Assembly: GCA_025267735.1 (NCBI GenBank)
Contig: CM046311.1
Coordinates: forward strand, 22,714,020 to 22,778,019
From: Mactra quadrangularis
Lineage: Eukaryota; Mollusca; Bivalvia; Venerida; Mactridae
DNA length: 64,000 nt
Direction: 5' to 3'
Position numbers and translations under genes: made by a program. Shown here in pieces: positions 10,892 to 64,000 of the stretch; position 1 is the stretch's first letter, and each line of letters opens with the position of its first letter. The notes beneath the pieces are model-generated. The model was not told the origin of the DNA. It searched no databases and saw nothing but the letters and a program-made list of their open reading frames with translations.

Positions 10892-10978
10892 CTTGACATG
10901 AAGGTTCAGTTCCATTCCATTTAAAATCTTTAACACAATGTCTTGTGTATGTTTCCTGAGTTCCAAAGATACGGTATC
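10892..10978 (-). CDS. Exon 4: sushi domain 2, second half
   Basis: Encodes YRIFGTQETYTRHCVKDFKW followed by NGTEPSCQG, supplying the third and fourth Cys and the conserved Trp to complete the domain begun in exon 3. The donor gtaaat follows. Read through, the frame stops within six codons. Confidence 0.78.
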
Positions 10979-13900: not shown

Positions 13901-16900
13901 GCTAAATAATGTGACCTCGTTCACAATGTTTTCCTTTTATCTGACCTTGTGACATTATCTTTATCCAAGATAACTGACATATAGAATGCTTACGAAGTCA
14001 TTGTTGAGGGCTTAGGCTATTAATACTGTATGTTAACTGTTGTATATAATACCGACTATAAATTAAAGTTAGTATTTTGTATCAGGGCGTAGGACAAAAA
14101 AATCGATTTCAATACCTCTCACTGTCACTACGTGACACGTGACCTTAAATAACTAGGGAACGTTTGGTAATAATATGTACATCTAGGTCTGATGAAAACT
14201 TGGTGGGACTGGTTAAATGAGGTTGCATGAATATTCCGCCTAGTGTGAGTCAAAATTGTTATAAGATTATAAACCAATAAGGAAACATTATATCTTCATA
14301 CGTCCACACTTTGGTGGTAATCCATATCCCCCTTCACCTACGGTATCACATAATTACCTAAGAAATAATGTTTCCAATCACAAAATGCTACCTTTATATG
14401 ACGGGATGTTGCGTGTTTTAGCTCGCCTTAGCAGTATCTCAGGGTGAGCTTTTGGGATTGTACGGAGTCCGTCGTCTGTTTACAATTGTCTGTGAACCCT
14501 CTAGTGGTTACATTTTTGGCTCATTTTTGTCAACGCTTGTCTAGGTTATTGCTCGGATAAATTCAAACATTATTCATCTCGGATGAAAAACTAGAACATA
14601 GGAATTAAAAAATAGAAAAACCTTGTTAACAATGTTGTGGCTACTGTTTTTATCGAATTATAATGGGAATTGGTTTGAAAGATTGTTTTGATGGGTCATC
14701 TTGGATACTCAGGTGAGCAACAAATGGCCATTATGACCCTCTCGTTCCATTTCATGGTACCGTGTAGGGAAAACAATTGTCGGTGTCTGCAATTTGCATT
14801 GGTTCATTTGAAAACAAGTCTTATTTTCGATCAGCAGCATGCGGATTTCTCGTGCAATATCGTTATAAATAAAGTCAGAGAAAATGCGATAAGTGCATAA
14901 ACGGTTTACCATTTTATAGGATGGAGAGAATAAGCTCCCGTTCATCGTGACGTCATTAGACAACTACTCGTCAAACGTTTTAGACGAAAGAACTAGTCAG
15001 TTAACGCAATGTCTATTAAAATATTTGACATAGGAGTCGACTTGTTCAACAAAAAACATTTAAGCTGAGCATCAAATACCTCCGGATGGAAGTAGCCGCA
15101 TGTTTTTATACAGCGAAATAGAAACCAGTGATATATGCGACTAAAAAAAGGCTCAAGAATTTGACGGCATTATATCATATAAAAAAGGATAGTATACTAA
15201 ACATGTAAAATGCTCCGTGTTTAGCAACAAAGTTTTTTTTATGTAGAAGTTAATTTTATATCTAAATTTCATTATGTTTACTATTCTGTTAAACAAAACT
15301 GCAAAAACTCTTTTTCGTATTCAATAACAGAGTTGCGATTTGATTGCATGTTTTACGTGTTTACTGTAGTATTTAAAAAAGAAACTAGATCTTTGTTTCT
15401 GCTCAAATTATTTTTATAAAATGACAAATACGACCGGTTATCATCAATTCGTGCCTTTAATTCAAACTTTATTCTTTTAAAATAGAGGTTACACGATCTC
15501 TACGACTATGCTGACGATAACACGCTGTTCAGTGCCCACCACTCAGTAGAAACAGTAGAAAAAACCTTGAATTTGACAGTAGATATTAAATTAATTAGTT
15601 TACAAGCTATAAAATGCAAGCGACTCCCCCCAAAAAAGTCCCATTTCCATTGGTACAAAACACACAGTCAAAACGTGTTTTTTATATTGATAGTTTTGAT
15701 ATACACTGTGATGAAGAGGTTAAACTTTTGGGCATTACAATAGAATTAAAACTTAATTTGATAAATATATCTCTTTTAAATACATAAAGACTTCAAACTA
15801 ATTAAATGTACTTACAAGAATTGGGAAATACCTTCATATGCTCGGCAAATTGAATAGTTTTTACTCCTTTTATATTACTCCAATTTTAATTACTGTCCGC
15901 TTATATGGCATTTGTGTAGCAATGCTGACACCCAAAAATTGAAATATACTGAAGATACCTCTCCGTTTTATATATAATGATTGTACGTCCAGTTTGGAAT
16001 CTGGTTTGAAAAAAGCCAGTTTTACCAACTTTGAGAATAATACGTTTATGTATAATGGCTATTGACAGCTTCAAATCATACATAAAACTTACCCAAATGT
16101 AACTGTTGTATATAATACCGACCCTGAATAAAAGTTTGTATTTTGTTTCTGGAATTAGGCCTAACGAGGTCCTTAAACTCGTCCGAGAGTCGATCTTCTT
16201 TATCAGAAAGTAACATTTCAACGCTATTGCAATCAAAATGCACAAACAACTTCTATAGATTCCCCGTCTATTTACCAACATTGGACCTTTCTGTTCTACG
16301 CTATCTGGAAACTCTAGTTTAGTCATTTTTACGTGACCTAGTTTAATGAACAATAATTGTAACTTACAGTTTCGGAGAAAAATTATGCTATGGTCATAAT
16401 TCGATTAAACTAATCATTTATTGATACCAAGCATGTTTGTAGGAAATAGTTATTTTCAGCGACTAGTTGTCAAAGGAGGTTGCATTCGGATGTTACCAGA
16501 ATTTATCTGTACGATATGAGTTTTTTTATCTATTTTTGAAAATATTTCATCTCTTTTCAACAAGTTTGATATTTTAAGCTTTTTATAATTAAGCACCGTT
16601 CCATCAGTACTACAATTATTTTATTTTGTAAGGCGCCCGTTCACAAAAATTTTTTTGTACACTTTTCTGTTGACTGTGCATACAAAAGAAACTCTCAAAT
16701 TGAGAAGTTTAGTAAATTCCTGTCCCAGATTATTGTGACAAAATTTGAAATAAGCTCATCATAAATGAAATGTAAAATAAAATGCCTATATATATACCTG
16801 TACACTGAAAATCTACTTTCGTCCATTTTCCATTTTTGCATGTTGTGCGTATATTTCCGTTCATTATATAATCATCCTCACAATTATAATCGATGTATGA

Positions 16901-19900
16901 ACCTTCATCATACCGGTTATTATTTCCATTATGTGATTTTTTCGTGATATAAGAATTAGCGGGTATATCTGGTTCATCACAAAATCCTCTCACACCTGTA
17001 ATAGACAACTGGAATTTTAATTGAGAAGATATAAAATACAATACAACATGAGAACTGTTTTGTTGTTTCCAAGAGTTCTTTTTCAATCAATACATTCTTT
17101 AACCTAGTCTAGTAGGATTCTTGATACCTCGGGGTACGAGAATGTAATCAATATATATTACAATATAATAATTATGTATAAAGTCAGAAATGATTCATGC
17201 ACATAGTATTAATACAATTTTATGTCGAGTTAAATTCTAAAGTCATATATAGTAACAATGTGTATACATGCATTAAATTTATCATCATACAGAGGTCATA
17301 ATATGGAGATCCTTTTTAATCGTATGAACAACTGTATAATTGCCATGCTACAAACACAAAAAATTCAAACATGTCGTGAATACCTTATGCCGAGTTTCTT
17401 TACATTATCGTGAACTAACACGAGATATAACGCCCGATATGTTTCTTTGCCTTCGAATTAGTTTAAACTCTAGTTATAATTCTGTTAAAAAATGATCTAG
17501 GAGTATTTGTTAAATTGCGTTTCTTTAAATACTCTCAGAGTTAAGTCACTTAACGAAGACAAAATCTTTATCATCAATCTCAAAACAAGTAAAATTATCA
17601 AAATGCAAAAATATATAACTGCTTAGGGGTTATAATAACTCTCTCTCTTTAGCGGGCTCCCTTGTAGGGGTCAAGTTCTTTAAAATATCAATTCCTTATA
17701 AAAGTGGGATACTTTAATTATAATATTTAATTTAGACAATGAAGGTACCCTCTCAGTCAATTAAATTGTTTAAAAGTGGTTTCAGAAAATTTACACAACC
17801 GCGTTGTATAACGTATACAATATTGCAGAGTGTTTGGTATATCATATCGTTTTTCCAGTGATTTTTACTCGAGAAACCAGTGTGTGCAAGTTTTGAGTAC
17901 GCACATATCTACACTGATGTTAAAAAGAAACGCTCTATTTCAACTAGGTACATAATTTTGGTGATTCAGAATAACAAGAGAAAATATTGATGTTGTTAGC
18001 CTTTAAGAAGTGCTTAGTGGCGTGTGCAACGCGGGGTCTGTCGTTTTTATGCTGTTAGACAAAGTCTTAACGTTGCCAGAATTATCAGACGCTTACTGGG
18101 CATATTAACTGGTCGATGAGAAGTTTCCAAGAGATTACCTTGGCAAACAATGAGCTATGACTTAAACTCGTTTTGAGACGCTGATAAGTCTAAGAACTTT
18201 ACATGAGTCGAAACACGACTTATCTCTGAACACTACATTCTCCCAACACCAAGTCCGCGAAGATTCGAGCGGAAAGATAGACGTTGGTGAACTTTAGAAC
18301 TAGCCTGCGGTACGGTTTTTGTCAAACATGTAAATTTCCCATTGTTTGTCGACTTATTTGCCATACACGATTATCCTTTCACCACACATGACGTAGATAC
18401 TGTCGCAAAAATCTATTACGTATGAAAGCTGATTTTCGTTTCTTCGTCGCGAAGATTAAAAAAAACGAAGGCACGACAAAACCATAGCTTGTCGTATCTT
18501 CGCATTTTCATTTTTCCTAATCGTTGCGGCGAAGAAACGAATACACGCCGAAATAAATACAACAATTCGTCAGATAAAATGTGTCGTGTCTTCGCCTTAC
18601 ATCTGTCGTTTCGTTTTTTCGCCACGAAGAAGTGGAAAAAGAAACGTACGACAAATTCAGTTTGTCGTATCTTCGCATTTTCGTGTTTTCTTACCTTTGC
18701 GGCGAAGAAACGAATACACGACAAAATAAATGCAACAATACGCCCAATAAAATGTGTCGTGTCGTATAGTTGCATTTTTGCAGATATATAAACGTATCCT
18801 TATTTATTTCCAAAACATTTATAAATGTATGAGAGCAAACCCACATAAGCAAAGATGGCGAAACATGCATATCAAATGAATACATATGCAAAGACGAAAC
18901 AAATTATAATCTATATTATTTAGCACTTTTTAATCAACATACCAGATGGCCAACATCCTTGTGTTGTCATTAACGTAATTTTCATGAATAATTATTATGC
19001 ATTTCATGTAGATCAGTTATTTAATATTTTATCCAACTCTATTACTATACGCTAACATAACCACACATAATACACTTTTGTATATTGTATTGTTGTATTT
19101 TGAGCCGACGACTTTGATTTTCTTGAATAGAATTTGTCTTATCTTGTTCGTATTGACAACATAGTGACATGGTCACCTAAGGGGAGCATTTGGATTTATT
19201 CACATGAACTTTGTTGAGTAAAACACTACTCGTGTTAATTAATTTCAACACACCAATTAATATCTAATTCTTATAATATGCGCAATAGAAATACCCCTGA
19301 ATTTAAAACAATCTAAGACTATATAGCGGATAAGCAAACCCCAAATAAGTCAGGAGTTAATCCGTCAGTAAAGTAATTGGGCATTAGATGAGAGTTTGCG
19401 TTACTTAAAAAATAGAAAATAAATCAGAGATTATTTCGGTTGTATTCGGGGTTATTTCTTAAAAGATAGCAAATCCAAGATTATTTCGGTTGTAGAAAAT
19501 AAATGACACGAGTAGCGATCACTATTAAAGTCCACGTGAATTAAGTGCAAATATTCCTCTAATGTCCTATGTCTTTACTGGAGGATTAAATCCTTACAAA
19601 TTTGGGGTTTACTAACCCGCTATATTATTAATTGTTTTGAATTCGGGGTTATTTCTGTCGCGTTTCTTTAATTACATATCTCTTCCTTTGTTTAACATGG
19701 GTTAATATATTTCGGAACAACTTAGTAAAACAAAAGATTTCACGTCCAGGTAACGATGGATTTACAGTAGAGTTTTTTTAAATTCTTTTGGAAAGACATT
19801 GGAATGTTTCTTGTAAGATCAATGAACTTTGCTTTTAAAAAAGGAGAACTTTCAGTAACCCAGAAACAAGGAGTAATAACATGTATTCCTAAGGGAAATA

Positions 19901-31879: not shown

Positions 31880-32470
31880 TGCACCTGAACTTAATCCGGG
31901 TGCTTGGCAACCCAAGTATCCATGTGGAGTCTTTCAAAAGGCTGCAAAATGGACATCTCCAGGTGTGCAGTGCCACTCCTGCAATATATGGTATCATACT
32001 GACTACATAGGCATAAACAATGAAGTATAGCGAGGTCTACATAACATATCTTAGGAATGCTTTTAATGAGAAGTCCCAAACTTAAACTCCAGTTTTTTTA
32101 TCTGACATTTAAAGAAACCATAAACAGTTTCAACTCCCTGAAGGATGATTGCCAATTTAGATCAGATGGATTGAATTTTAGTTTCACCAACACCTTCACT
32201 ACGCAAGGAACACCATCACGTCACCGTATAGCTAGTGACATAAGAATTCCATTACTGTGGATAATAATTGTACCTATCCCAGTTTTTCTGTGAAGAAGAT
32301 TTTCAATATGTACAAAACCGTGCTAGACAACGGGATGACATTCCACTGAAAGTTGTTACCCTTAACTGCCAGTCAATATCATCAAAGAAGTCATCACTGA
32401 ATGTCATGTGTGAAAGTATTGATGCTCATAAGGTGATTGGTACTGAATCTTGGTTGACCCAGAATAATTA
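31880..32470 (+). mobile_element. LINE fragment: PHD finger and start of endonuclease
   Basis: The frame at about 31905-32028 reads YPCGVFQKAAKWTSPGVQC, then CNIWYHTDY and a stop, a PHD finger of the type found at the N-terminus of some molluscan LINE ORFs. Two zinc ligands are altered: Cys to Phe in the first pair, and Cys to Tyr after the His. After frameshifts comes a Ser/Thr-rich linker (32057-32290) and then the start of an exonuclease-endonuclease-phosphatase domain: LKVVTLNCQSISSKKSSLN, ending at GTESWLT (32325-32460). There it breaks off abruptly against a different LINE. Confidence 0.7.
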
Positions 32471-32479
32471 ACTTTAGAC

Positions 32480-46963: not shown

Positions 46964-46974
46964 ATGTCATATTG

Positions 46975-48459: not shown

Positions 48460-49680
48460 AAAAATTTGGCTAATTGTTTGGCGAACACGGGCGGGTGGGT
48501 GTCCGGTCGGATTGGCGGGCGGGCGGTTGGGCGGGCGTCCGGTGCTGTTAACAATTGCGTTAAAGTTTTTAAAGTACTTTATATTTCTGCCATATATAGT
48601 CAGATCTCTACAAAACTTTATGCGATGATAATATACTATGTAATGAACAGAATAAGACAGTTACCGCAACTATACCTGGTTTATTTATGGATTATTGCCC
48701 TAAGTAATTTCGGGTGTCTGTGGTGTCGTTAACAAGTGCGTTAAAGTTTTTAATTTGGCATATTTTTTTGCCATTTATTGTTAGATCTTTACGAAACTTC
48801 ATTGAATGATAACATACCATGTGATGAACAGATTAAGACAGTAACCACAACTCTACCTGGCTATATAATGGATTATTACCGTTTTTGCGTTAAAGTTTTC
48901 AAATTGTTGGATATCTCTGCCACTTATGGTTGGATGTTTATAAAATTTAATAAAATTATTACATACCATCTGTTGCAAAAAAAGACAGTAACAACAACTC
49001 TACCTGGCTTAAAAATGGATTATTTCCCTTTGTTAATTTTGCGTTAAAGTTTTCAAATTATTAGATGTCTCTGCTATTTCTGGTTAGATGTTTATGAAAT
49101 TTTATAAAATGATTACATACCATCTGTTGAAAAGCATTGGACATTAACGGCAACACTATACCTGACTTAAAAATGGATTATTTCCCTTTGTTATTTTTGC
49201 ATTTAAGTTTTGTTGGATATCTCTGCCGTTTATGGTTCGATGTTTATGAAATTTCATATAATGATTACATACCGTCTGTCGCAAAGAATAAGACTATAAC
49301 AGTAACTCGACTTGACAAAATAATACATTACTTTCCTTTTTTGCGTAAAACTTTTTAAACTGTTGGATATCTCTGCTATTTATGGTTTGATGTTAACGAA
49401 ATTTTATCGAATTATTATATACCATTTGTTGAAAATAATTAGACGGTAACCGCAACTCTGCCTGGCCTAATAAGGGACTTCCTCCATTTGTTGTTTTTTT
49501 GCGTGAAAGTTTTCAAATTGTTGGATATCTCTGCCATTTATGGTTAGATGTTTATGAAATTTCATACAATGATTACATACCATGTGTTGAAAGAATTAGA
49601 CAGTAATGGCAACTCTACCTGGCTTAAATATGGATTTTTTCCCTTTGAAATTTTTATGGTAAAAGTTTCAGTATGTTGGA
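48460..49680. repeat. About 155-bp satellite-like tandem array, seven units
   Basis: The landmark gcgttaaagttttcaaattg recurs in variant form at about 48556, 48731, 48886, 49043, 49198, 49343, 49501 and 49655 (mostly 145-175 bp apart). Each unit continues with ttggatatctctgccattta, atgtttatgaaatt, gattacataccatctgttg and caactctacctggcttaaaa. The array starts with a G-rich leader (gggcgggtgggtgtccgg, ggcgggcgggcgg; 48488-48535). Several frames stay open because the units vary. I consider them noncoding. Confidence 0.9.
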
Positions 49681-51436: not shown

Positions 51437-51739
51437 TTTTGTTTTGTTGGGTTTAGCGCCGTAGCAACACTTGTATTTGTCATATAACGGAAGTCAGTCA
51501 ACCTACTCACTGCTCCTGGAAATGCTTAATCTCTGGATTTAGCTGTTAGCCAACTACTAAGCGCATACTTTCGTCAGTGACTGACAACTGCCATGCATAA
51601 TTAAAAATCATTGGTAGGAGGGAGAATGACCGTATAAATAATTTCATGACCAAGCTCCACGAAAGTATGTCCCGCCCGGGAATGGAACCAACGACCAATC
51701 AGTAGATTTGCGTGCTACCAATTGAGCTAGTCGGGTGGC
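51437..51739 (-). repeat. tRNA-derived SINE, family A, full length
   Basis: In reverse complement the head reads ccgactagctcaattggtag (A box) and then ggttccattcccgggcgg (B box), followed by gacatactttcgtggagctt and a body shared with 60886-61194. The tail ends in gttgctacggcgctaaaccc followed by aac repeats. Confidence 0.88.
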
Positions 51740-51744
51740 TTCTA

Positions 51745-52395
51745 TGTTGGGATTGACCAATGTGAAACTAGCTTTTATTAGTTACTAGTCACAAAAATAC
51801 AACAAAACTGATATTGAAAAGAATATTGCTGTCATTTATTCAATAAACCATTTCACAAAAATATGTTATTCTAATGAATAAGTGAACAATAATTATTAAT
51901 TGCTTTATATCAGCATTTAAACATGTTTATTGTAGTAGCTATCCATAAGCTTTAATAACATTTCTTATAAAGGCATTAGAATAATACTTTACAGTACCCA
52001 CCAAAAGTTCGGAGACAAAAAATTACACCGATTCTTGGATTATGTTGATTATTCTTGCTGAATCATTATTTTTCAAATATTTAAGCATCGTTTGTGATAA
52101 AATAAAAACAAATTTCAAGCTTGCAACACATTCATAAGATCCAGCATCTGACATCCTATAGCCTCCAAAATCATGTTCATGGTTACTGTTTTCAGTTACA
52201 GCTTTTATGCTATTGTTGTAGTCTCAACTATTATAATAATGATAACCAGAAAATAATGCAAAATACAAAGCATTTCAAAATAAACAGTAAACAAATTCTG
52301 ATAAAAGCTATTTGGTAGGCCTACAATCTGATAATGTCTGTACATTATACTCAGTAGTTCTTCAAAAGTTATTATACAACATATACATGTAGTTT
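51745..52395. other. DNA downstream of the sushi/PAN gene
   Basis: AT-rich, with no exon found. The 3' untranslated region of the minus-strand gene probably ends near 52398. Confidence 0.35.
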
Positions 52396-52397
52396 CA

Positions 52398-52403
52398 TTT
52401 ATT
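52398..52403 (-). promoter_or_regulatory. Candidate polyadenylation signal
   Basis: AATAAA on the minus strand, the first such hexamer downstream of the stop codon at 52522 (about 120 nt away). It is a reasonable distance for the gene ending there, but AT-rich DNA gives this hexamer often. Confidence 0.4.
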
Positions 52404-52521
52404 GTTTTATGCACTAATATTCCTAATATTCACGCATTAAAAGAATCAAACTCATACAGCTAATCACGTTTTAATATCATTTTCTCTAATAGATCTACAT
52501 GTACTTGCAGAAACCATAATT

Positions 52522-52802
52522 TCATTTCTTTCTACAAATTCTATTAAAGGATTTATATTGTCTACGGGTTTCATCTTGAAAGTTGTCTCTAAAGTGGTTA
52601 CTAGATGCTGAATCTCTATGTAATGTACAATGTCCTTTATTTTTACTTGACGGCATGAAAAATACACTGGCACATCTAAAACTTTCTTCTTTTACACAAG
52701 CTTGTTTACATCCTCTTACGGAAGTCCAAATTGTACTTGGTCTTCTTACGGGGGTTCTATTTAAAGCCTGTGTGTATGTATGAACACAACGTTCTGGATG
52801 TC
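52522..52802 (-). CDS. PAN/apple-like terminal exon
   Basis: Encodes 92 residues with six Cys in PAN/apple order: GHPERC, VRGCKQACVKEESFRC, GHCTL and FNRIC, then KK and TGA. The C-x3-C-x(7)-C cluster (GCKQACVKEESFRC) followed by a later HC and a final Cys fits the three-disulfide pattern (1-6, 2-5, 3-4). PAN domains bind proteins or carbohydrates. Acceptor: tatttttcag. Confidence 0.75.
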
Positions 52803-55800
52803 CTGAAAAATAAAATGTGTTTTAGAAAGTTTCCTCCTGACAGAGTATTAAACGCTCAATATTGAATCTTAGTTGAGTGTCGACATTCAGTATGAATTAA
52901 AAATTAAGCTCTATCATTAGACAGATTGACCATTGGAACAATACTATCATATAAATGCTTTGCAAATTTAAAAATAGAAGTTTTGTTGTAAATGAAGATG
53001 GCATAAATGTCAAAGTTTGTTAAATGATTGTTTTAGATAGATTTATATTAGATATAAATAATCAATTTTAAGCTTTTTTCACTTGGCAGTTGACATCATC
53101 AAGAAACTATGTTAGGTGCCAAAGGGCTCATTCTCATACCCAGAAGTAATCAAGGTTCTTGATGTAAGTATCCAGCATACTGATATCTTCTGTGTATTGG
53201 AATGTAAATGACTATATAAGCATAGTGCATTTTACATCAAACAAATACACCAATTTTGGTTATAAGTTTTTGAAAACTGTTTATTTTCTTGAACATTGAT
53301 TCTCAAACTCAAATAAGTTGTGTATTGGCACTAACTCGAATAAATGGTTGAAACTGTACAACTAAATGCGGTTACAACACTTCTGCATTCAAGACAGCGA
53401 CATACGATTTCCAGAAGACTTAATTACAAATCCGTTGAAATAGTGTGAGCAAGAATTATCTTGACCTTACAATTCAGCCAATCCGGTCATTGATATTTTT
53501 TTTACCCATTATGCTAACAAGCGAGATATTCAAGAGCTACCGGACCAGAAAGTGGAAACAGACGCACAAACGACATACAATACATCATAATGAATTTCAC
53601 TTTTTATTCAATAATAAATATCAATACAATGTCAAATGGACGAAACTATTGTATGTTATACTTAAAGATCGTTTTCTTTCCGTATATACAACCAACAAGG
53701 CGGAAACGACAGCAATAGAGAGACACAAAGATGACTTGTTGTATCTTTGTCATTTTAGACTGTTTAACTTTTTAATTGTGTTGGGGTTAACGCCGTAGCA
53801 ACACATTATATAAGTCATTTAACGGCGTCCAGTGCACACAACCTAGCTTTCCTGGACCGTTGTCTATTACCAGTACTCATCTACTCTTCCACAAGACCGG
53901 AAACTCCTCCATATACCTTTTTAAGCGGAGGAAAATTGATATAACTGTCGAATTTCATGAAGTGTAATAACCTCCCCGGGTGGGATTCAAATCTGTTCCC
54001 CCTCGGGAATCTAGATTCGAAATCCAGGTGTGCTACCAATAGCGCTAGCAAACAGGGTTACATTTAGACTGAGTTCAAAATGAAACAGTTTTTTCCTTTA
54101 ATTTTATCACAAGTCTAGCCCGCTTGAATCGCCTGTCTTGTTCCTTGAACATATTCAAATACCCATAGAAGACCACCATAATTAAGAAATTAACATACCT
54201 GATATGGTAAAAGTTCTTGGTGTATCTGACGTCAGCCATTTATTTCCTGGATGTTGGTCTTTAAATACATAATAATCATCATATGCCGGAACAAATATTG
54301 ATACATGATCTATCAACATGTTATCATCGCCTGCAACCTTTGTTTTCTTACTGATGACAACATGATCTATCTAGAAAAACAATACAAAAACTAATTATAC
54401 TTGACGTTGATTGCAATTACAGTTTTAAGGCTCAAACGGAAACTGTGTGTAGTTAATCAAAACCGTATTACACTTTACGAGTTGAGTTTGATTGCACTGT
54501 TTGTTTTTTACAACTGCATTTAGAATTTACATTTGGAATTCTTACTTGTAAAAATCTAAAACTATTCACTGATATAAATGTTAATATTTGCCTTTCAATG
54601 TTTATTTTCGAATCAATAGTTCATAGTGAAGCCTTATTTTTGACCTAAATAAATCATTTTTGACGCAGGAAGTATTTCCAGATTGGAACGAACGTTTTAG
54701 AAAGCAAACTAGAAAAGAGGACTAGAATAAATTTTAAGTCCAGAGAAACAAGCACCAAAGAGTATGACAAATGACATTGTACACAAATATAATATACTGA
54801 AAGGATAAAGAAACGCAGGGTAACATTTCTTCCGATATTTTGAAAACGCGTTCTCCAAATAAAGTTTTGTGGATTGAGTAATTGGGTCATATTACACCTT
54901 GCCATGTATCGAAAATTTAGTCACTGTTCAATGTGCAGTTCTGGTAAATGGAGGAAGGAAAAAAAAATATCGTGCACCGTGTTGTTCTGGTCTCATGCAG
55001 CGTTGGTCAAGTCACTCTGCGTTAGTTTATTATGACCAATTGCTTTCCAAAAATTAATTGAGAATTTGATTTGTTTTAAGAATGGCACGACCCACAGAAG
55101 TTTTAAGGGGTCAGGCTATTCAGATGCTGATGCAAGGACAGCTACAAAATTAGGTTGCTAGGCAATTTGGTGTTAATGTTTCCACCATAGAACGTCTTGT
55201 AAGAAGTCTTCGGAAACTGGCGATTGGGCGATTGGCCGATTGACCTAGGTCAGGCCGTCCGCGCGTAACGTCACGACGTCAGGATCACTATATCGTCGTC
55301 TTTCATAAGTGTAATCGGCGCCTTACTGCCGTTGAGAGTGCACTTAATGTTCGTGGAAATAATGGGTGTCCTATAAGTTCAAAACCGGTAAGAAATCGAT
55401 TACGAGAAGTTGGTGTAAGAGCACGCCGCCCCTACGTAGATCCACAACTTACCCCTACTCTACGTCAGCGTCGTATGATCTGGGACGCTGCACATACTCC
55501 ACGACGGTTTCCACTGAGGCAGATTTGCCAAGTCTTTCTGGCCAATAACAACATTCAACCACTAGATTGGCCGCCATATAGCCCTGATTAAGCATCTTTG
55601 GGACCAGTTGGATAATCAGGTTCGAAAGCACCAGCGTCCCCTGCTACTCGACAGCAGTTGCCCAGAGCTCTGATTAAAAAGTAGGACAACATCCCCATAA
55701 CATCCCCATAAGACGGATTAACGCTCTCATGAACTCTATGACCAGAAGAATAAGGACCATGACCACGGCAAACGGTGGACACACAAAATATTGATGACTC

Positions 55801-58800
55801 AGATCAATTTTAAAATCCTATGGATCGACTCAATTTTATCGTCAATACTACTAAACCAATTGACAAATGCAATATACAGACTTTGGAATTTTTTAAGCAT
55901 TAATTTATCTGTAAGTATACGAAATTTCGTTTTAAAAAACGCCCGATATCAAACTTAATTTCTGGTTTATATTTCTCACTGCGTTTCTTTATCCTTTCAG
56001 TATATATACCAGATAATTATACAGATTAAATACACTGCACGTTGTATCCTACAAAAATGAGAACAATCTGCACTAGCTGGTGTTATAGTACATGTTATTT
56101 CCACTTGTCGACCCATTCTGTCTTTAGATGGCAAAGTTATGCTACGGACAAAAGAATTATAAACCGATCGAGACACACGCCATCAATTATTCCATAATAC
56201 GTCTTGCCTTCTTTGTTTGTTTGGATTTTACGGCGCACCAACACAGAAAGGTCATATCGCGCATCTTTTCTTCGACGAGAGTATAAAAATTCAAAAGTTT
56301 CATAGAATAAGTATATTGCATTATTGTATGATGTATTTTACTTACAGGGGTAACGTCTGTCCCGTTGTAGTTTATTTCTGATAATCCACCTTCACCCCAT
56401 GTGTATATTCCTATTTGATCTGTTCTTTTCCCATTCGTTCCAACAATTTCAATGTAAACATAGTCTTTAGTTGAAGAATACCGTCTCTTAGATAATTGAA
56501 AGCTTATAACATATTTAAAATTGGACCCTTGAATGTAAAAATGAGTTTTTTATTAGTTCAGACATCGTAATGAATATCAATTATTAAACCTGTAAGCCAG
56601 GACTTAACATATAAACACATTCGCAGGTTAATTATAAAATGTCAATGTTAATAAGATATTATTCAGTATGATAATTACATAAATGGTAGTTAAATAGTCA
56701 GTCGTTATACATCTTTGACATGCTTATACGGAGAAGAACTTTCGTTCAAATTATATTCAAATAATGTTTAGATATGTAAACTATTGTCAATTATATATTT
56801 TATATTACAGTGAACATTCTGACATATAGATCTATTTACTCTAGAACAACTTTTTTATGAAAATTGGCTGACATATTAAGAATACTGTTTACAAGTCATT
56901 CGTATCAAGTCTCTTTACCACGAACCCATGGGATCAACCTAAGGACAGTAATTTCTATATTGACATGCAATTAAATACACACCACTAAATTTATAACGTG
57001 GAGCATAGTGATGTCAGTCTGTCTATTCAACATTTTTTTGAGAAAATAATCCACTGTATGTTCTGAATTAAAGATAATTTTTATAAGCAGATTCAAACAT
57101 TTTAATGTCTTACAATCGGTCAGTTACAGCTTACCACATAAGAAATAGAACACACCACGGAAGGCCTCCTGTTCTAATAGTGACCGACCATTAAGCCCTA
57201 TGACAAATAGTGGACTGAGGCCGAAGGCTGAGGTCTACTATATGTTAGTGGACTGACTGAGAGGTCACTTTTAGACCAGCAGACGCTCAGTGGTGGGTAC
57301 TGTTTCTTATATTTTAAAGCACCTTTTTAACAATTAATATTTTGCAAAAGCAAAATAATAAATAAAATTATTGTTTAACAATTTAAGGTAAAAAATGTAT
57401 AGCATCAAGTTTGTTAACACGGCGAAGTTTTCATGAAAATTACATAGTGGGTTACACGCCACTAAACCAGTATTTAATGGTTTCGACTGAATATGGCGAC
57501 AGCGGGCCACTATCATATTAGCGGGTCACTGTCATATTATTACGGCCTGCTACCGAAATATGATTAAAAAATACCCGCTATGTTAATACGCGAAGAAGTA
57601 GCAATTTTATGTAAGGTATACTATAAATTGATATTGAATAATATTTTTATGGATAATCAATTGTTTAGTTACTTGTCAGGTAATATTCGAGTATTGCTTG
57701 TCAGGTAATATTCGAGTAATAGTAAAATTACATTAAGTTTTATTTGGATACACGTACTGCCAAACAGGTTGAAGTAAACACGACAAAAAACTTAAATTGA
57801 TGACAAGCAGCCATTGTATTTAACATGGAATGCTGTACATACATTTTCATTTTGAATAAAGAACATTAATTGATTTAGCTGCATGTAAAAACACGCAACC
57901 CCATACAGACTGTTTCCTCTCAATCACTGAATATAACATAAGTTTGAAAACAATAATTACGTAAACATGTGATGATATTATCCCACGATCCATCTTCTGT
58001 ACATGTCATTACAGGGTTAGATGGTTCGTATTGTTGAGGACATTCCATTTTGTCTGAGTAAATTGATTCATGAACCTGAAATACTTGTCTGTTGCTCTTG
58101 TACGGAGCTGTTCCGGCTGGTAAGTCACAACCTGTTAATTAGAAAAAATTGAAGTAAATATAAATGTAAACAAATCCATTCAGGCTTTCAAAAAAGTATT
58201 TATATAAAGTAAGAAGATTATTGAAAAAAGAAGGAAAAAGTAGGACTCCCTTTCTATTTTTCGGCCGCTAAAAACTACATTAACAATCTTACGACAATTT
58301 AACAGCCCATTCATTAAGATAAATTTACCAATCAAAATACAGCTGTTGTTAAATTTACAATTTCATTGTTTAAACTTTTAAGTCTAATTAAAACAGGTCA
58401 GCATAGTATGGATTAGCCGAAAAATGTTACAAAAACTGATATTATTCATAGCGGACTTTCTCATCATTTCATTAAAAATAGTACACTAGTCAGAGGCTTG
58501 CACATGTCAAAATGGATTATAATCTAGTTTCTGAGGACACTGTACATTGTTGTAACACAAGGCTCAATCAGAAAGGGGGATTTTTGCCTGTCCAGGGTCA
58601 AAAATTCAAGTTCCGAGTGTTTTGCTTTTATAGGTGCTAAACTATGGAATAATCCAACCAGTATTTCAGACATTGACAATGTTTATTCTTTTAAGGTGGA
58701 CATCAAGAATCATTTCTATCAAAGTTATAAACATTCTAAATATTGTAATAACAATGCTGCATAGGCTTTTAAATTTGATCTATACATGTACATGTACTAG

Positions 58801-61800
58801 TTTGTTTTTTCAGCGCAGCTTTCTAGGCCAACTTTTTAACCTACATTTTAACAAAAACAATTTGCTCTACCATAGCTGTTTGTCCAATGAAAATCCTTCA
58901 CGGTATTAAGAAATGGATAAAACACATGCCACCATTGGCTATTTGTGATAAATAGGTGCGTAGCATTCACAGTAGTCGCTGATTTTTTACTCTGTGTATA
59001 ATGAGAGACTAACTCTGCTAATAGATCACCCATTCGTCGTGGTACGCCCTTTGCGGTATAACTAAACTGCGAATATGACTCGGCGCACGATCGAAATGGG
59101 TTTTCATTTTGTCATAATTATGTAAATGACCAACTTTTATACTTCAAACCGTTGAAAAGCTATTGACTTTCAGGTATAACAAATCTGTGAAAATAATGTT
59201 ATATTAAAAGTAATATATAATATAGTTTTATTGTATGACAATATTGTGATATTTTAGGTGATATTTAATTCAATTTGACATTTTACAATATAATATTATA
59301 AGTGTTTGACATTTGTCCCTCTATGTCCTGCCACCAATACAAAGGACAACAATGGAAATCAAAACTACATCGTTTTTGTAATATCCTTGGAAACGGGTGG
59401 CATGTCATGGAAATATATTTCTATACCTTTTTCTAATGCCCTGTGTTATTTATTGTCTAATTAACTAAATGTAATTTGTACTCATGATTCCGTCAGAATT
59501 TTTAATTGAACCATTAAGTGTTGCCTAATAATGAAATAAATATATGTAGCTATATTGATACCGTTAATCGTAACCTCAAACAGACACAATTTCGTATTTG
59601 ATCAGCCGACATACACGTTATGATTTTGTTGCAGATGATCAGAGTAACTCTGCAATAGTGACAATTGATCTAGTTTAAACAACCATTACAATTAGTAATT
59701 ATATCAAAATTCAACATACCTTTTATTTCACAATTTTTACCATAACTACCCACTGGACATACACATTTACCTGAGTTATCACATCTACCTTCATTTTCTA
59801 CACAAGCATCTGGACACTTAACTACAAGTAAATGCTACAAGTATACACTACATTTTTGGTAGTTGCGTATTCCGTTCTTATTTGTAAAAATGTATGTTAT
59901 TCAATGAATATAAACAGCAGAAATATCAATTTCAGTAAGAATACAAATAGTAGCAGCAAGATCAATCTTCCTGCTATTCAAGAAAAACTGGGAATTAAAA
60001 GTTACTCAAACATCATGCAAGGACTGCTTTGCTGTTAAGCATGTTGCCTAAGGTGAAATAAGAAAAGCAAAATTGGCTTATCATATAATAAAACCGATGA
60101 CATAATGTGTACAGAATATTATCATGATATGCCATTCTTTGTAAAGGGTGTCATTAATGTCCTGTTTGTCATGAATACAGAGAATGTTTGCACTAGGATA
60201 AACCTACATTGCCGGCGCATCCGGCTTAAAAATGACGAACCTATTAAATATCTTTCGAAAACCCAGACCATGCAGTGAAAGATACGATAATTGGGATGCA
60301 TCAGAAAATGTATGGAGCAAAAAATGATTTGGCGTCATCTAAGAGATGGTTATGGATGGAGAGACTTAGTACCATCAAAACTTATTTTTGTAATGCAAAA
60401 CCTAGTTTCCATAGCATTGTTCCAGATAACAATTTGGTTCAAAATGCGTAACAACGCTAAATGACGACAATGACGTCGTAAATATATATCCACCCCATAT
60501 CCATATCATGTCATATATTAAAACAATATAGAAATAACAAGTAAAATGGAATAATGTTATGAAAACATCACTTGATATAGCCATCGGTTGTTATATATAA
60601 AATTAGAGTTACTCATTTTATATGTAGTAAATACGTTAGTACTATTCATACAAGCAAGAAAATTAGTGAAATCTTGTAAGTGTTTGTCGTATATCAACCA
60701 GTGAATACACAACTAATATTCAAATAAAACATTTAACTTATGTACAAATTTTACCTTGTTCACATCTATTCCCAGTATATGATTCACCACAAACACATTT
60801 GTTATCTACGTGACATTTGCCGTCATTTTCACAAGGAGGATCACATTCAGCTTTAACAAAACAGAGAGTACAGTACTAGTGGTAAGTTTGTTTGTTTGTT
60901 TGGTTGGTTGGTTTTACGCCGTAGCAACAAATTTAACGGCGGTTAGTCAACCTAATATTTCCTCTTGGAATGACTATATCACTGGATTTGACTGTTAACC
61001 AACTACTAAGTGCATACTTTCGTCAGTGACAGACAGTGACTGTCCTACGTAATCGAAATTCATTGGTAGCAGGGAGAATAGCCGTAGAAATATTTTTATA
61101 TCCAAGCTCCACGAAAGTATGCCCCGCCCGGGAATCGAACTCACTCCCCCTCGATCAGTAGACTGAGTGCTACCAACTGAGCTAGTCGGTCGTGTTAAGT
61201 TTGGTCTATAATAGCAATTAAGCACCTAGATGACAACTGCAATTTATAAAACATTAAACACGGTGCTTATATAAGATGGGAGTATTTATTTCAAGTATTT
61301 GATCTCTTACCCATAAGGTATTAAAATAGCACGTAAGCGAGACAACAAAGGTTCGTGAAAAGCCGAAATACAAGCTCTGAAGGCAAATACAACTATTATG
61401 TTTACTTGGTAGATAAACGTGTAAGACAATGCAGACTAAGAAAGGGTAATGGTTTTACTTATCACAATATACATTGTTGTCCATTCTCATACACTGCCCT
61501 CCAAAAGTACCTTCACACATTCCCAATTTACATTGAACTAAATTGGAATTCAAAATGTTGTATAAGCAATCAATTGCTAAATGACTTAAATTTTACTATT
61601 TGAAACCAGTACATTTTTCCCTATGATTATGACATTACAAAAATATCTCAAACTTTAAATTGACTGATTGGGATACAATGGCCATAGTTTCGATGGCTGT
61701 TACTTAACTTTGGCTGCAACTTAAATAATAAAATTTACCGATAGAAAACAATTTTCATTACATGAATAATGAACTAAATAAATAATGATATAATAATTCT

Positions 61801-63347
61801 GCAAATTCGAACATAGAAATTGTAGCAATTCAATTAGTTGTACTGTAAAGAAACTTTTGGAGGGCAGTGTATAATGTTTCAGTCATTAGAAATGTTAGAA
61901 TCATTAATTCTGACTAACTAAGTATTTCACTAAACACATCTAACCTACCTTCTTTACATTCAGGAAATGTTCCATTGGTCACAAATGACCAACTGTTTTT
62001 ATCAAACGCAATCCATTTACCCTCTCGACATTTAAATGATCTATTAAATGGCTCATAGATCATGTTTGCAACTTTAGAACAACTAAATATAACATCATCC
62101 CCAGCTTTTATTACATTATCACCGCCAATATACCTTTGGTTACCGTCTTTATTTTGAGTTAATGTTAAACGACTGTCAAATTGAGATGGAATCGTACAAT
62201 CATCTGAAAATTGAATTGACAATTTTATTTTATTTATATCAGGTCTTTGATTAAAAAAATGACGTGCGTATGTGTTGCTTTTTCATGAAAATATTACATA
62301 AAAACCATTGATAATGAGATGTATCAGGATTTTAATTATCAACTGCACCGTATATTCTTCCTTCCTCTTTTCCATATACTTAAATGTATTATATGCTTTG
62401 CTAATGATTAAAATATGTTTAAGTGCTGTAAACATGTTTTATAGACAAGTCAAAACAAAACTTATCACATTTTAGAAAATCAAGGCCATCGGTCTAAAAT
62501 ACAGCGATATAATACACAAAATGTTATGTTTATTTTGATTTTTAGCATTAAAAGGAGACAACATTTAGAAATTCTTTACTAATTATTATACATTTGTACG
62601 TATCAAAGAAATTATGACCACCGGTCCGAAATACAACAATACATTATACAAAAGTGTGTTTTTATAATGATTTATTAGTTATATGGTAGGACAATATATC
62701 GAATTACTATATATAAATATAAATTCTGTTAATTGATACCTATAAGATATATCCAACATTCCTTCATAAAAACATTGGAAGCTAGTTATGATGAAGTTCA
62801 ATGTGTTTTTACTGAAACAACGAAGCAATTCATTCAATACTCCTCATGATTGATTAAAACGCAGATGATTTGCAATCTGAAGTTTACTACTAGATGGATA
62901 ATCCGAATAGATTAACAAACGGACTAACGCCAACAGACGGGTTGTGTTGACAGATAGCTGGAGGGCTAATGCAGGGGTAGAAAGTTAGCCTATATTTCAG
63001 CATTCTTGCTCAATACTGGAATATATTGCCCACATTTTGGCTATATATTTGTTATTATTTTAAGAAGCATATGCAATAAATATATAGATATTACATTTGT
63101 AAACATACACATCACAAAGACAACTACAAAGAACAAATGTATTGTATTACTGAATACTTACCTTCTAAACAGACAGGTATTTTTCCACCTGCACATGTAA
63201 TTTTTTGATTATCACAAGTACACGGTACCTCTGGACGTACATTAAGATGAAATCCGTGGTTACATTCGATAGTATATTTGTCTAGTTGAGCCTCACTTAA
63301 TATTTTACCATGTTCGACTATAAAGTCACTACAAGGTTCATATGGTA
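52522..63347 (-). CDS. Modular secreted protein gene: sushi, EGF, unassigned beta-rich domain, PAN (5' end outside the window)
   Basis: Eight minus-strand exons: 63347-63162, 62203-61949, 60850-60755, 59821-59720, 58131-57961, 56527-56346, 54370-54199 and 52802-52522. All have GT/AG sites. Phases are 1 at every junction except the one inside the beta-rich domain (phase 0), and the frame is open throughout to the TGA at 52524-52522, giving about 480 residues. Order: sushi-like, sushi-like, EGF, EGF, sushi, beta-rich domain, PAN/apple. The first exon enters in phase 1, so more exons lie beyond 63347. No transmembrane segment is seen, so the product is probably secreted or cell-surface bound. 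The domains fit adhesion or recognition. A complement-like or lectin-like role is possible but not shown. A Tc1 element and two SINEs sit in its introns, and the exons are intact. Confidence 0.8.
53776..54054 (-). repeat. tRNA-derived SINE, family C, near full length
   Basis: In reverse complement: gctattggtagcacacctgg (A-box-like), tttgaatcccacccgggg (B-box-like), gagtttccggtcttgtgga, gtactggtaatagacaacgg, tccaggaaagctaggt, and the tail gtgttgctacggcgttaacc. It lies in the last intron of the sushi/PAN gene, on the same strand. Confidence 0.8.
54199..54370 (-). CDS. Beta-rich domain of unknown family, second exon
   Basis: Continues in frame: IDHVVISKKTKVAGDDNM, IDHVSIFVPAYDDYYVFKDQ, HPGNKWLTSDTPRTFTIS. 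VSIFVPAYDDYYVF followed by KW is the kind of strand pair that closes a beta sandwich. The phase-0 acceptor (tttttctag) matches the previous exon and the phase-1 donor (gtatg) matches the PAN exon. Confidence 0.68.
54793..56004. mobile_element. Tc1/mariner-type element with deleted catalytic core
   Basis: About 27-bp terminal inverted repeats: atatactgaaaggataaaga aacgcag at the left end (from 54793) and ctgcgtttctttatcctttc agtatat at the right (to about 56004), next to TA-rich flanks. It lies in the intron between the two beta-rich-domain exons of the sushi/PAN gene. At about 1.2 kb it is shorter than intact elements of the family (about 1.6 kb) because the middle of the transposase is gone. 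Confidence 0.88.
55082..55795 (+). pseudogene. Tc1-like transposase, truncated internally
   Basis: Begins MARPTEVLRGQAIQMLMQGQ, a helix-turn-helix start (VARQFGVNVSTIERLVRS), then PRSGRPRVTSRRQDHY, RLTAVESALNVRG and RARRPYVDPQLTPTLRQRR, to RRFPLRQ. At about 55520-55550 it jumps to PLDWPPYSPD, the conserved block near the end of the catalytic domain, so both catalytic Asp regions are lost. A stop replaces a residue at about 55156, with more stops and shifts at 55240 and after 55588, although the C-terminal phrases (RALIKK, DNIPI, ANGGHTQY-like) are still readable. Confidence 0.88.
56213..56264 (-). repeat. SINE/LINE 3' tail fragment
   Basis: The plus strand reads ttgtttgtttggattttacg gcgcaccaacacag aaaggtcatatcgcgc, the reverse complement of the LINE tail at 39640-39690. 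Confidence 0.8.
56346..56527 (-). CDS. Beta-rich domain of unknown family, first exon
   Basis: Encodes about 60 residues without Cys: FKYVISFQLSKRRYSSTKDY, VYIEIVGTNGKR, IYTWGEGGLSEINY. The alternating hydrophobic pattern and the VYIEIVGTNG segment recall PLAT/LH2-type beta sandwiches, but I cannot assign it. It ends in phase 0 (donor gtaagt), the only non-phase-1 junction of the gene, as expected for a boundary inside a domain. Confidence 0.68.
57137..57309. mobile_element. 173-bp foldback MITE
   Basis: The left end taagaaatagaacacaccac is inverted at the right end (gtggtgggtactgtttctta) with three mismatches. The inner arms also pair (tgttctaatagtgacc with ggtcacttttagaccagcag). It lies in an intron of the sushi/PAN gene and has no coding capacity. 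Confidence 0.8.
57662..57720. repeat. 26-bp tandem duplication
   Basis: Two adjacent copies of cttgtcaggtaatattcgag followed by ta(t/a). Confidence 0.9.
57961..58131 (-). CDS. Sushi domain exon
   Basis: Encodes GCDLPAGTAPYKSN, then KMECPQQYEPSN, VMTCTEDGSW and ITC: four Cys with the conserved Trp between Cys3 and Cys4, a standard sushi module. The donor gtaatt leaves a C in phase 1 that pairs with GG of the next exon to give Arg. Confidence 0.85.
58140..59715. other. Intron of the sushi/PAN gene
   Basis: About 1.6 kb of AT-rich DNA between the sushi and second EGF exons. A plus-strand frame at 58634-58909 contains LWNNPTSISDIDNV-like words after a shift (aaactatggaataatccaac, about 58639), possibly the C-terminal end of a LINE ORF. 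Confidence 0.35.
59720..59821 (-). CDS. EGF-like domain 2 exon
   Basis: A 102-nt phase-1 exon reading VKCPDACVENEGRCDNSGKC, VCPVGSYGKNCEIKG. Cys spacing is 3, 6, 5, 1, 8. The GxYGxxC end is typical of MEGF/tenascin-type EGF repeats. Confidence 0.88.
60755..60850 (-). CDS. EGF-like domain 1 exon
   Basis: A 96-nt symmetrical phase-1 exon reading AECDPPCENDGKCHVDNKC, VCGESYTGNRCEQ. Cys spacing is 3, 5, 5, 1, 8, canonical for EGF modules. The calcium-binding D/N-x-D/N-E start is not present. It is too short to show as a long open frame. Confidence 0.88.
60886..61194 (-). repeat. tRNA-derived SINE, family A, full length
   Basis: In reverse complement: cgactagctcagttggtagc (A box), gagttcgattcccgggcggg (B box), then catactttcgtggagcttgg, and the body ending in gttgctacggcgtaaaacca followed by (acc/aac)n. 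It closely matches 51437-51739. It sits in the intron between the long sushi-like exon and EGF 1. Confidence 0.9.
61200..61945. other. Intron of the sushi/PAN gene with a split inverted phrase
   Basis: The phrase cactgccctccaaaagtacc (about 61492) is inverted at about 61855 (ggagggcagtgtataatg). The intervening 370 bp may therefore be a foldback element with short termini. No coding signal. Confidence 0.45.
61949..62203 (-). CDS. Long sushi-like exon
   Basis: Encodes about 85 residues with four Cys: DDCTIPSQFDS, VIFSCSKVANM, FKCREGKWIAF and GTFPEC. Insertions before Cys2 and before Cys4 make it longer than the usual 60 residues. Trp in GKW is conserved. Confidence 0.72.
62225..63155. other. 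Intron of the sushi/PAN gene
   Basis: AT-rich, no feature recognised. Two related phrases, aaaatcaaggccatcggtct and agaaattatgaccaccggtc (62475 and 62607), suggest a decayed duplication of about 130 bp. Confidence 0.4.
63162..63347 (-). CDS. Sushi-like exon with extra cysteines
   Basis: Encodes about 62 residues: VPYEPCSDFIVEHG, then KYTIECNHGFHLN and PCTCDNQKITCAGGKIPVC. The six Cys and the GF aromatic position resemble a sushi fold with an added Cys pair. The usual Trp before the last Cys is absent (GGKIPVC), so it is an atypical member. Confidence 0.7.
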
Positions 63348-63487
63348 CTGAAATATGCATAATACTATATTAGCTTTAATCAAGTGCAGAAAAATGTAGG
63401 GTTCTAAAACAAAAACAGTACACGGATTCAAAATGAATATTGTGTTCAAGTAAGGATAAGTGAAGCAGAAAGTAACAAGTTATGTAG

Positions 63488-63694
63488 ATTTAAGTTCAGA
63501 TTTCGAATCCGGAGATCGCGGGTTCGAATCCCGGTCGCGGCAGGTCATACCCTATACATGAGTTGTCGGCCTCGTGGTAGGGTGAATTAGTACTGGTGAT
63601 AGAAAAAGTGTCCAGGAAACCTATAGTAGGAAGAGCAAGCCGTCGTGTATATAACCTATATATGTTTTAATGCGACGTTAAAAAAATTAAATTG
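63488..63694 (+). repeat. tRNA-derived SINE, family B, 5'-truncated
   Basis: Starts inside the tRNA-like head (atccggagatcgcgggttcg aatcccgg, with a B box), continues gagttgtcggcctcgtggta, tagtactggtgataga, aggaaacctatagtaggaag and ccgtcgtgtatataacc, and ends at gcgacgttaaaa. It matches the minus-strand copy at 25770-25993. Confidence 0.85.
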
Positions 63695-63699
63695 TTTGA

Positions 63700-64000
63700 T
63701 TTCTTTTGTTCTCTTCTTTTGCAACTTATTACTGGACCTCCAATGATAACCAATTACTTTTGTGTAAAGTTTGGAGTACATCCCTTCAATGATTTCAAAG
63801 AAAAAATGTAGCAAGAAAAAATACAAATGTGAATGATATTAACATGCTACATATACATTTAATGAAGAAGTGCTACGCCGACTCTGACAAATAGCCGAGT
63901 ATGAGCTGTTATCCGAATAGTCGAGATAAAAACCGTGAGGTTTTGAATACCAAATAAGTATAATGTATTATTAAATAACAAACTGAAATTCACGCAACAC
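63700..64000. other. Window end, AT-rich
   Basis: No exon of the upstream part of the sushi/PAN gene could be identified here. Confidence 0.3.

What the first reader, a model, noticed from the sequence alone, without database searches (positions are those of the whole stretch)
52522..63347. Modular extracellular gene with an unusual domain order (sushi, EGF, unassigned beta-rich domain, PAN)
Eight short exons join in a single open frame, with all but one junction in phase 1. I do not recall a named family with this order, and the 118-residue Cys-free beta-rich domain before the PAN domain is not assignable by eye. The order suggests a secreted recognition or adhesion protein built by exon shuffling. 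What I see: exons, Cys patterns and phases. What I infer: function.
Basis: partly seen in the sequence, partly recalled or inferred. Interest (0 to 1): 0.75.

Follow-up and report, generated by a model that had tools for sequence, protein, structure and literature searches.

The report
Mosaic secreted protein with PLAT-PAN tail
This stretch of an animal genome holds the end of a large gene for a protein, probably secreted, built from complement-like (sushi), EGF, lipid-binding-type (PLAT) and PAN modules in an unusual order, one of a small fast-changing family on one chromosome.

Summary
Eight minus-strand exons (52522-63347) join in one open frame; six of seven junctions are phase 1, one phase 0. 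The gene continues right of the window as sushi-like exons, up to an N-terminal sushi exon about 51 kb beyond it. The unassigned Cys-free domain is PLAT/LH2: under Pfam's cut-off here, above it in two paralogues. The last exon is a divergent PAN/apple domain (six-Cys spacing; moderate profile match; no Pfam match). Order: sushi(n)-EGF-EGF-sushi-PLAT-PAN-stop. The own genome (979 Mb) shows this PLAT-PAN tail at four loci, all on contig C19. One is a tandem copy, whose 5' exons I place in this same window; it keeps all eight exons, splice sites, phases and 32 of 32 cysteines, without a stop. Pairwise dN/dS is high (0.68). The 3' ends of the tandem copies are 94% alike, other colinear blocks 68-92%. 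Two copies double an EGF exon and lack matches to others. Relatives at 33 Mb share N-terminal modules but show no PLAT-PAN match. I read it as a secreted recognition/adhesion family growing by phase-1 exon shuffling. The modules are known; I found no published match for the combination, within a limited search. Function is inferred.

The parts
63162..63347 (-). exon A: sushi/CCP-like module with six Cys (phase 1 to 1)
   Evidence: by Cys pattern, no Pfam match alone; conserved in the tandem copy with all six Cys
61949..62203 (-). exon B: divergent sushi/CCP-like module, four Cys (phase 1 to 1)
   Evidence: by Cys pattern, no Sushi match in Pfam alone; 84 codons aligned with the tandem copy, dN/dS 0.32
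60755..60850 (-). exon C: EGF-like module
   Evidence: EGF_2 27.6 bits over cut-off 22.1 for exons C+D scanned alone; under the cut-offs when the whole protein is scanned
59720..59821 (-). exon D: second EGF-like module
   Evidence: as exon C; a doubled match in paralogues P3 and P4, both exons read in P3
57961..58131 (-). exon E: sushi/CCP module
   Evidence: PF00084 21.9 bits over cut-off 20.7
56346..56527 (-). exon F: first half of PLAT/LH2 domain (phase 1 to 0)
   Evidence: PF01477 over F+G, 21.9 bits, cut-off 23, E 3e-4, profile 1-112 of 117; 17.5 bits in the whole protein; 23.8 and 23.9 bits in paralogues
54199..54370 (-). exon G: second half of PLAT/LH2 domain (phase 0 to 1)
   Evidence: as exon F; hhalign of four paralogues against six PLAT domains of the same genome, probability 84%, E 7.6e-6
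52522..52802 (-). exon H: C-terminal PAN/apple domain and stop codon
   Evidence: Cys spacing 25-3-7-14-30 against 25-3-7-11-26 in one PF00024 match of the same genome; hhalign probability 36%, P 3.7e-4
52398..52403 (-). polyadenylation signal AATAAA
   Evidence: its printed coordinate is one base low; position read
16798..16995 (-). N-terminal sushi exon, taken to belong to the tandem copy P2
   Evidence: PF00084 37.2 bits; one of six strong copies of this exon in the genome, all on C19
11845..11955 (-). P2 sushi exon, first half
   Evidence: PF00084 43.6 bits over both halves joined; DNA match in P1 at extended coordinates 92408-92585; exon ends read by eye
10892..10978 (-). P2 sushi exon, second half
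   Evidence: as above; DNA match in P1 at extended coordinates 90587-90719

Best explanation
The exons are the 3' part of a large gene (about 62 kb from its first recognised sushi exon to the stop) for an extracellular mosaic protein: a row of sushi/CCP modules, two EGF modules, one more sushi, a PLAT/LH2 domain and a C-terminal PAN/apple domain. It belongs to a local family on one chromosome: four copies with the PLAT-PAN tail, plus relatives that share N-terminal modules but show no such tail. The family changes by tandem duplication, by doubling and apparent loss of phase-1 modules, and by recent duplication or conversion of 3' ends. Shown here: gene model, domain identities (PAN at moderate strength), paralogues, module differences and fast protein change. 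Inferred: the 5' exons outside the window join this gene; the protein is secreted; the sushi/EGF row reaches for a ligand (microbe, gamete, matrix or self protein) while PLAT and PAN bind lipid, calcium-dependent or glycan/protein partners, so that it works as a recognition or adhesion bridge, most likely in body fluid or mucus as part of innate immunity. Likelihood: about 0.93 for gene and architecture, about 0.45 for immune recognition.
For: Gene model: frame, phases; donor scores, poly-A signal; all eight exons, splice sites and phases in tandem copy P2; 7.8 stops expected, none seen; 32 of 32 Cys kept, 364 of 470 residues identical. PLAT: (4 of 4 paralogues match, best E 4e-6), (2 of 2 sequences over cut-off; only 5-lipoxygenase in the PDB, over its PLAT region, E 0.35). 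PAN; crossed profile controls (73, 74) give 0.1%. Family: 12 matches at E <= 10, the F, G and H exons of four loci, all on C19; 24 matches, of which six are strong, all on C19; four of these lie on the same strand as the four PLAT-PAN loci, 28-62 kb from the end of exon H; 28 of 29 A-E matches on C19. Module differences. Fast change: dN/dS 0.68 for P1-P2 and 0.67-0.99 for PLAT-PAN between P1/P2 and P3/P4. 3' block 94% identical over 2.4 kb.
Against: No transcript, no signal-peptide exon identified and no expression site, so secretion and role rest on domain types. PLAT of this copy is under Pfam's cut-off of 23: 21.9 bits alone, 17.5 in the whole protein; the profile of four paralogues finds 5-lipoxygenase only at E 1.3. 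PAN has no Pfam, PDB or useful fold match; its lone-sequence model is poor (pLDDT 65). Scanned whole, the P2 protein shows no Sushi match at E <= 1. dN/dS values are simple pairwise NG86 estimates; some point estimates exceed 1 (C+D 1.32, G+H 1.34), but none was tested for significance, and they could also reflect relaxed constraint. Exon B of P3 carries a stop in its match, so at least one copy has decayed in part.
Confidence: 0.6

Rival explanations
1. A structural extracellular-matrix, shell, mucus or byssus protein of the Polydom/SVEP1-like mosaic kind, with no role in recognising non-self; the fast change reflects weak constraint on linker-like modules.
For: Sushi/EGF mosaics with PAN/apple domains are described among matrix proteins of a sea anemone and other cnidarians (Polydom, PMC12549020, passages). 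dN/dS below 1 overall and all Cys kept fit a scaffold.
Against: No vWFA or pentraxin domain was matched in the stretches scanned. Copies differ in modules, which I take as more usual for recognition families (inference).
Confidence: 0.33
2. A decaying gene family: P1 and its copies are losing function, and high dN/dS is relaxed constraint.
For: dN/dS 0.67-0.99 in PLAT-PAN between the two pairs of copies; exon B of P3 has a stop in its match; at E <= 0.01 there was no match to exons C and E in P3, and none to A, B, C and E in P4 (the P4 stretch was not read).
Against: P1 and P2 have no stop over eight exons where 7.8 would be expected; their length differences are whole codons and splice sites and all 32 Cys are kept; exons F, G and H match without stops in all four copies.
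Confidence: 0.1
3. The exons belong to two genes, a sushi/EGF gene (A-E) and a PLAT-PAN gene (F-H), read as one.
For: Relatives at C19:33 Mb carry A-, B- and EGF-like exons with no F-H match at E up to 10.
Against: All junctions keep frame and phase; P1 and P2 both keep A-H in order; at all four loci an N-terminal sushi exon lies upstream on the same strand, 28-62 kb from the end of exon H. I did not look for an initiator exon between E and F.
Confidence: 0.06

Closest known systems
Polydom / SVEP1 (sushi, vWFA, EGF, pentraxin 1), including cnidarian Polydoms with PAN/apple domains
   Same: Mosaic with sushi rows, EGF modules and, in cnidarians, a PAN/apple domain (PMC12549020, passages seen)
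   Different: No vWFA or pentraxin matched here; PLAT domain and C-terminal PAN instead; different order
PLAT/LH2 domain proteins (lipoxygenases, pancreatic lipase, polycystin-1, LOXHD1; mostly recalled)
   Same: The F-G domain matches PF01477 over nearly its whole length
   Different: No catalytic or channel partner seen; the PLAT sits between sushi and PAN and is split by a phase-0 intron
PAN/apple domain proteins (PF00024)
   Same: Six-Cys spacing and profile register like PAN_1 matches of the same genome
   Different: Below detection by Pfam; the own genome's 129 listed PAN_1 matches (150 of 448 candidates scored) include none of the four loci, and the nearest to any of the 56 listed PLAT matches is 446 kb away
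Wnt inhibitory factor 1 and teneurin EGF modules
   Same: The EGF pair C-D matches WIF1 best in the PDB (E 1.3e-15, residues 141-215)
   Different: Only the EGF stretch matches; no WIF domain seen
Regulators of complement activation (CCP arrays; recalled)
   Same: Tandem sushi/CCP modules, mostly one phase-1 exon each
   Different: EGF, PLAT and PAN modules added; several sushi-like modules very divergent

Membership tests
PLAT/LH2 domain (PF01477) | Match to the curated profile above the gathering score (23 bits) | tested here: inconclusive
   Met in paralogues: P2 23.8 bits, and P4 PLAT 23.9 bits. The window's own copy is under it: 21.9 bits alone, 17.5 in the whole protein. 4 of 4 copies match at E <= 1
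PLAT/LH2 domain (PF01477) | Profile similarity to accepted PLAT domains over the whole domain | tested here: met
   hhalign 84%, E 7.6e-6, 99 columns, against 6 of the 10 PLAT stretches read from this genome
PLAT/LH2 domain (PF01477) | Beta-sandwich fold | not tested
PAN/apple domain (PF00024) | Match to the curated profile | tested here: not met
   0 of 4 paralogues match Pfam PAN_1
PAN/apple domain (PF00024) | Six-Cys pattern of apple domains (pattern recalled) | tested here: met
   Spacing 25-3-7-14-30 against 25-3-7-11-26 in one PF00024 match of this genome; hhalign 36%, 35 columns, four Cys in register
PAN/apple domain (PF00024) | Apple fold | tested here: inconclusive
   Single-sequence model pLDDT 65; no trustworthy fold match
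Sushi/CCP (PF00084) | Match above gathering score (20.7 bits) | tested here: met
   Exon E 21.9, P2 pieces 37.2 and 43.6, two P1 5' exons 44.3 and 50.5; exons A and B not matched; 5' pieces: 2 of 9 over, 2 under, 5 unmatched
EGF-like | Match above gathering score | tested here: met
   C+D alone: EGF_2 27.6 over 22.1, EGF_Teneurin 25.6 over 24.3; under the cut-offs in the whole-protein scan
Polydom/SVEP1 | vWFA and pentraxin domains | tested here: inconclusive
   Not matched in the stretches scanned, but the full 5' end was not reconstructed

The most novel reading that the evidence does not exclude
A lineage-specific, chromosome-restricted recognition family that diversifies by swapping phase-1 sushi and EGF modules, while a common PLAT-PAN tail, homogenised between neighbours by gene conversion, serves as a lipid- or glycan-binding anchor: a germ-line diversified innate receptor system not described before.
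Probability: 0.2. Interest if true: 0.65.

Novelty: new variant of a known kind. Interest (0 to 1): 0.42.

Why it matters
If the reading is right, it gives a compact natural case of exon shuffling in progress: same-chromosome copies that differ by whole phase-1 modules, a tail present in one branch and not matched in the other, and a sharp boundary of 3' homogenisation. It also places PLAT, best known from enzymes and channels (recalled), in a complement-like mosaic next to PAN.

Tried and rejected

Rejected: that F-G is a new fold (it is PLAT by profile); that the window holds one gene only (its left part holds sushi exons that I assign to the tandem copy); that the organism can be named. C19 is 51.7 Mb and matches fall on C1-C19 of a 979-Mb assembly, which suggests 19 chromosomes and fits several bivalve groups, but that is a recalled guess.

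Own slips found on checking: the second sequence joins exon F of P4 with exon H of P3 (exon G is the same in both proteins), so it tests P4's PLAT but is a mixed PLAT-PAN sequence; in alignment A2 the last residue of rows 2-4 is read one codon into the donor site; one search prints the poly-A signals one base low.
Full report
What was claimed.

The exons are real. A script that joined the exons gave 480 residues plus a split first codon without an internal stop, introns GT-AG, six of seven junctions in phase 1 and one (F/G) in phase 0. Of 758 GT dinucleotides on that strand of 52001-64000, five score 8 or 9 of 9 against the donor consensus, and four of these five are exon ends. A poly-A signal lies about 120 bases past the stop.

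Independent support comes from the genome itself. The window lies at C19:22714020-22778019 of a 979-Mb assembly with 447 contigs. The 80 kb on each side were read. A tandem copy, P2, has all eight exons in order, from about window coordinate -379 to -19126, with AG/GT sites and the same phases. 364 of 470 aligned residues are identical and 32 of 32 Cys are kept. Length differences between them are whole codons, at three places in exons A and H. Random substitution at the same level leaves 7.8 stops on average, and none in 0.04% of 5000 trials; P2 has none.

The gene is longer than the finding. To the right, at extended coordinates 64003-114770, lie more sushi-like exons on the same strand. Of nine pieces tested, two match Sushi above the cut-off (44.3 and 50.5 bits), two below it (18.6 and 16.7), and five do not match. 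The N-terminal sushi exon at about 114.57-114.77 kb (C19:22828588-22828788) has 24 listed matches in the genome, of which six are strong (E 2e-23 or better; the next is 1.4e-7) and all six are on C19 (150 of 290 candidates were scored). Four of them lie on the same strand as the four PLAT-PAN loci, 28-62 kb from the end of exon H. The window's left part holds the sushi exons that I assign to P2 (16995-16798, 11955-11845, 10978-10892). So the window seems to cut two tandem genes: the 3' end of P1 and the 5' end of P2. No initiator exon with a signal peptide was identified.

Domain identities. EGF: C+D alone are above cut-off, though not in the whole-protein scan; the best PDB match is the EGF part of Wnt inhibitory factor 1, E 1.3e-15. 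Exon E: Sushi above cut-off. Exons A and B: by Cys pattern only; Pfam has no Sushi match to them. F+G: PLAT/LH2, PF01477, profile positions 1-112 of 117, 21.9 bits against a cut-off of 23, 17.5 bits when the whole protein is scanned. All 4 of 4 paralogues match at E <= 1, best E 4e-6. The whole P2 stretch reaches 23.8 bits and P4's PLAT 23.9, both over the cut-off. A profile of the four against six of the ten PLAT stretches read from the same genome gives 84% probability, E 7.6e-6. The only PDB matches are 5-lipoxygenase sequences over their PLAT region, E 0.35 with the single sequence and 1.3 with the profile. Exon H: no Pfam or PDB match, but its six-Cys spacing is that of an apple domain, and its profile aligns with that of the eight PAN_1 matches read from the same genome (of 129 listed) at 36% probability, P 3.7e-4, over 35 columns with four Cys in register. 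Crossed controls give 0.1%. I take it as PAN, with less certainty than PLAT.

Family. The PLAT-PAN part has 12 matches at E <= 10 in the whole genome, exactly the F, G and H exons of four loci, all on C19: P1 (window), P2, P3 (12.99 Mb) and P4 (23.19 Mb). P3 and P4 are 95-98% alike in the DNA compared. The A-E part has 29 matches at E <= 0.01, 28 on C19: five each in P1 and P2, four in P3, two in P4, twelve in a cluster at 32.999-33.154 Mb with 32-45% identity, and one on C7. That cluster has the N-terminal sushi exon twice but no match to PLAT-PAN at E <= 10. One 10-kb stretch of it shows EGF-EGF followed by more sushi-like modules. P3 has exon A, a match to B that carries a stop, exon D twice, and no match to exon E or to a separate exon C in the stretch read. 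Losing or doubling phase-1 modules keeps the frame, which fits what is seen. In the lists of single-exon matches PLAT and PAN do not go together elsewhere: the nearest of 56 PLAT and 129 PAN_1 matches are 446 kb apart. The PAN list is a lower bound (150 of 448 candidates scored; PLAT 74 of 74). Neither list contains the four loci, so a pair of equally divergent exons would be missed too.

Tempo. P1-P2 dN/dS is 0.68 over 470 codons; exons range from 0.32 (B) to 1.18 (D), while C and G have no synonymous difference; C+D give 1.32 and G+H 1.34. For PLAT-PAN the four comparisons between P1/P2 and P3/P4 give 0.67-0.99, P1-P2 gives 0.84 and P3-P4 0.34. These are pairwise NG86 values without a significance test; in G+H of P1-P2 the 21 nonsynonymous and 4 synonymous differences stand close to the ratio of sites (357 to 90), so positive selection is not shown. 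The last 2.4 kb (exons G, H and the 3' flank) are 94% identical between P1 and P2, while the other colinear blocks are mostly 68-82%, with one of 92% round exon C. That fits gene conversion or a later exchange, which I did not test further.

How it probably works (inference). Sushi and EGF rows are extended binding arms; PLAT domains in known proteins bind lipid surfaces or partners, often with calcium, and PAN domains bind proteins or glycans (recalled). A secreted bridge that holds a target with its N-terminal modules and a surface or partner with PLAT-PAN is the simplest reading. Fast change, tandem copies and module differences lean towards innate recognition; a matrix role is the main rival.

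Known or new. All modules are known. Polydom/SVEP1 is the closest described mosaic that I found; in cnidarians it includes PAN/apple (PMC12549020, passages). I saw no paper with sushi, EGF, PLAT and PAN in one protein in seven searches of the held library, of which four showed only their top rows. Animal protein databases were out of reach, so the same order may exist unannotated elsewhere. I call it a new variant of a known kind.

Noticed in passing
window 55100-55800: Fragment that looks by eye like a Tc1/mariner transposase, in the intron that splits the PLAT domain (plus-strand frame 55244-55591).
   Followed up: no
window 32468-34939 (+) and 43054-46966 (-): Two non-LTR retrotransposon-like reverse transcriptase regions, by eye.
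   Followed up: no
window 51438-51734 and 60899-61189: Two copies, 77% alike over about 300 bases, of a repeat that looks by eye like a tRNA-derived SINE; similar pieces recur in the flanks.
   Followed up: partly
window 508-1262 and 48547-49655: Tandem arrays of 45/90-base units and of roughly 150- to 181-base units.
   Followed up: no
C19:12.96-12.99 Mb and 23.16-23.20 Mb: P3 and P4, 10 Mb apart, are 95-98% identical in the DNA compared: a recent duplication, or an assembly artefact.
   Followed up: partly
extended coordinates 120227-120707 and window 22148-22622: Block 81% identical between P1 and P2 about 5 kb upstream of the N-terminal sushi exon; could be promoter, 5' exon or repeat.
   Followed up: partly
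extended coordinates 74930-75130 and 79281-79481: Two very similar sushi-like exons in P1's 5' part, which looks like an internal exon duplication.
   Followed up: no
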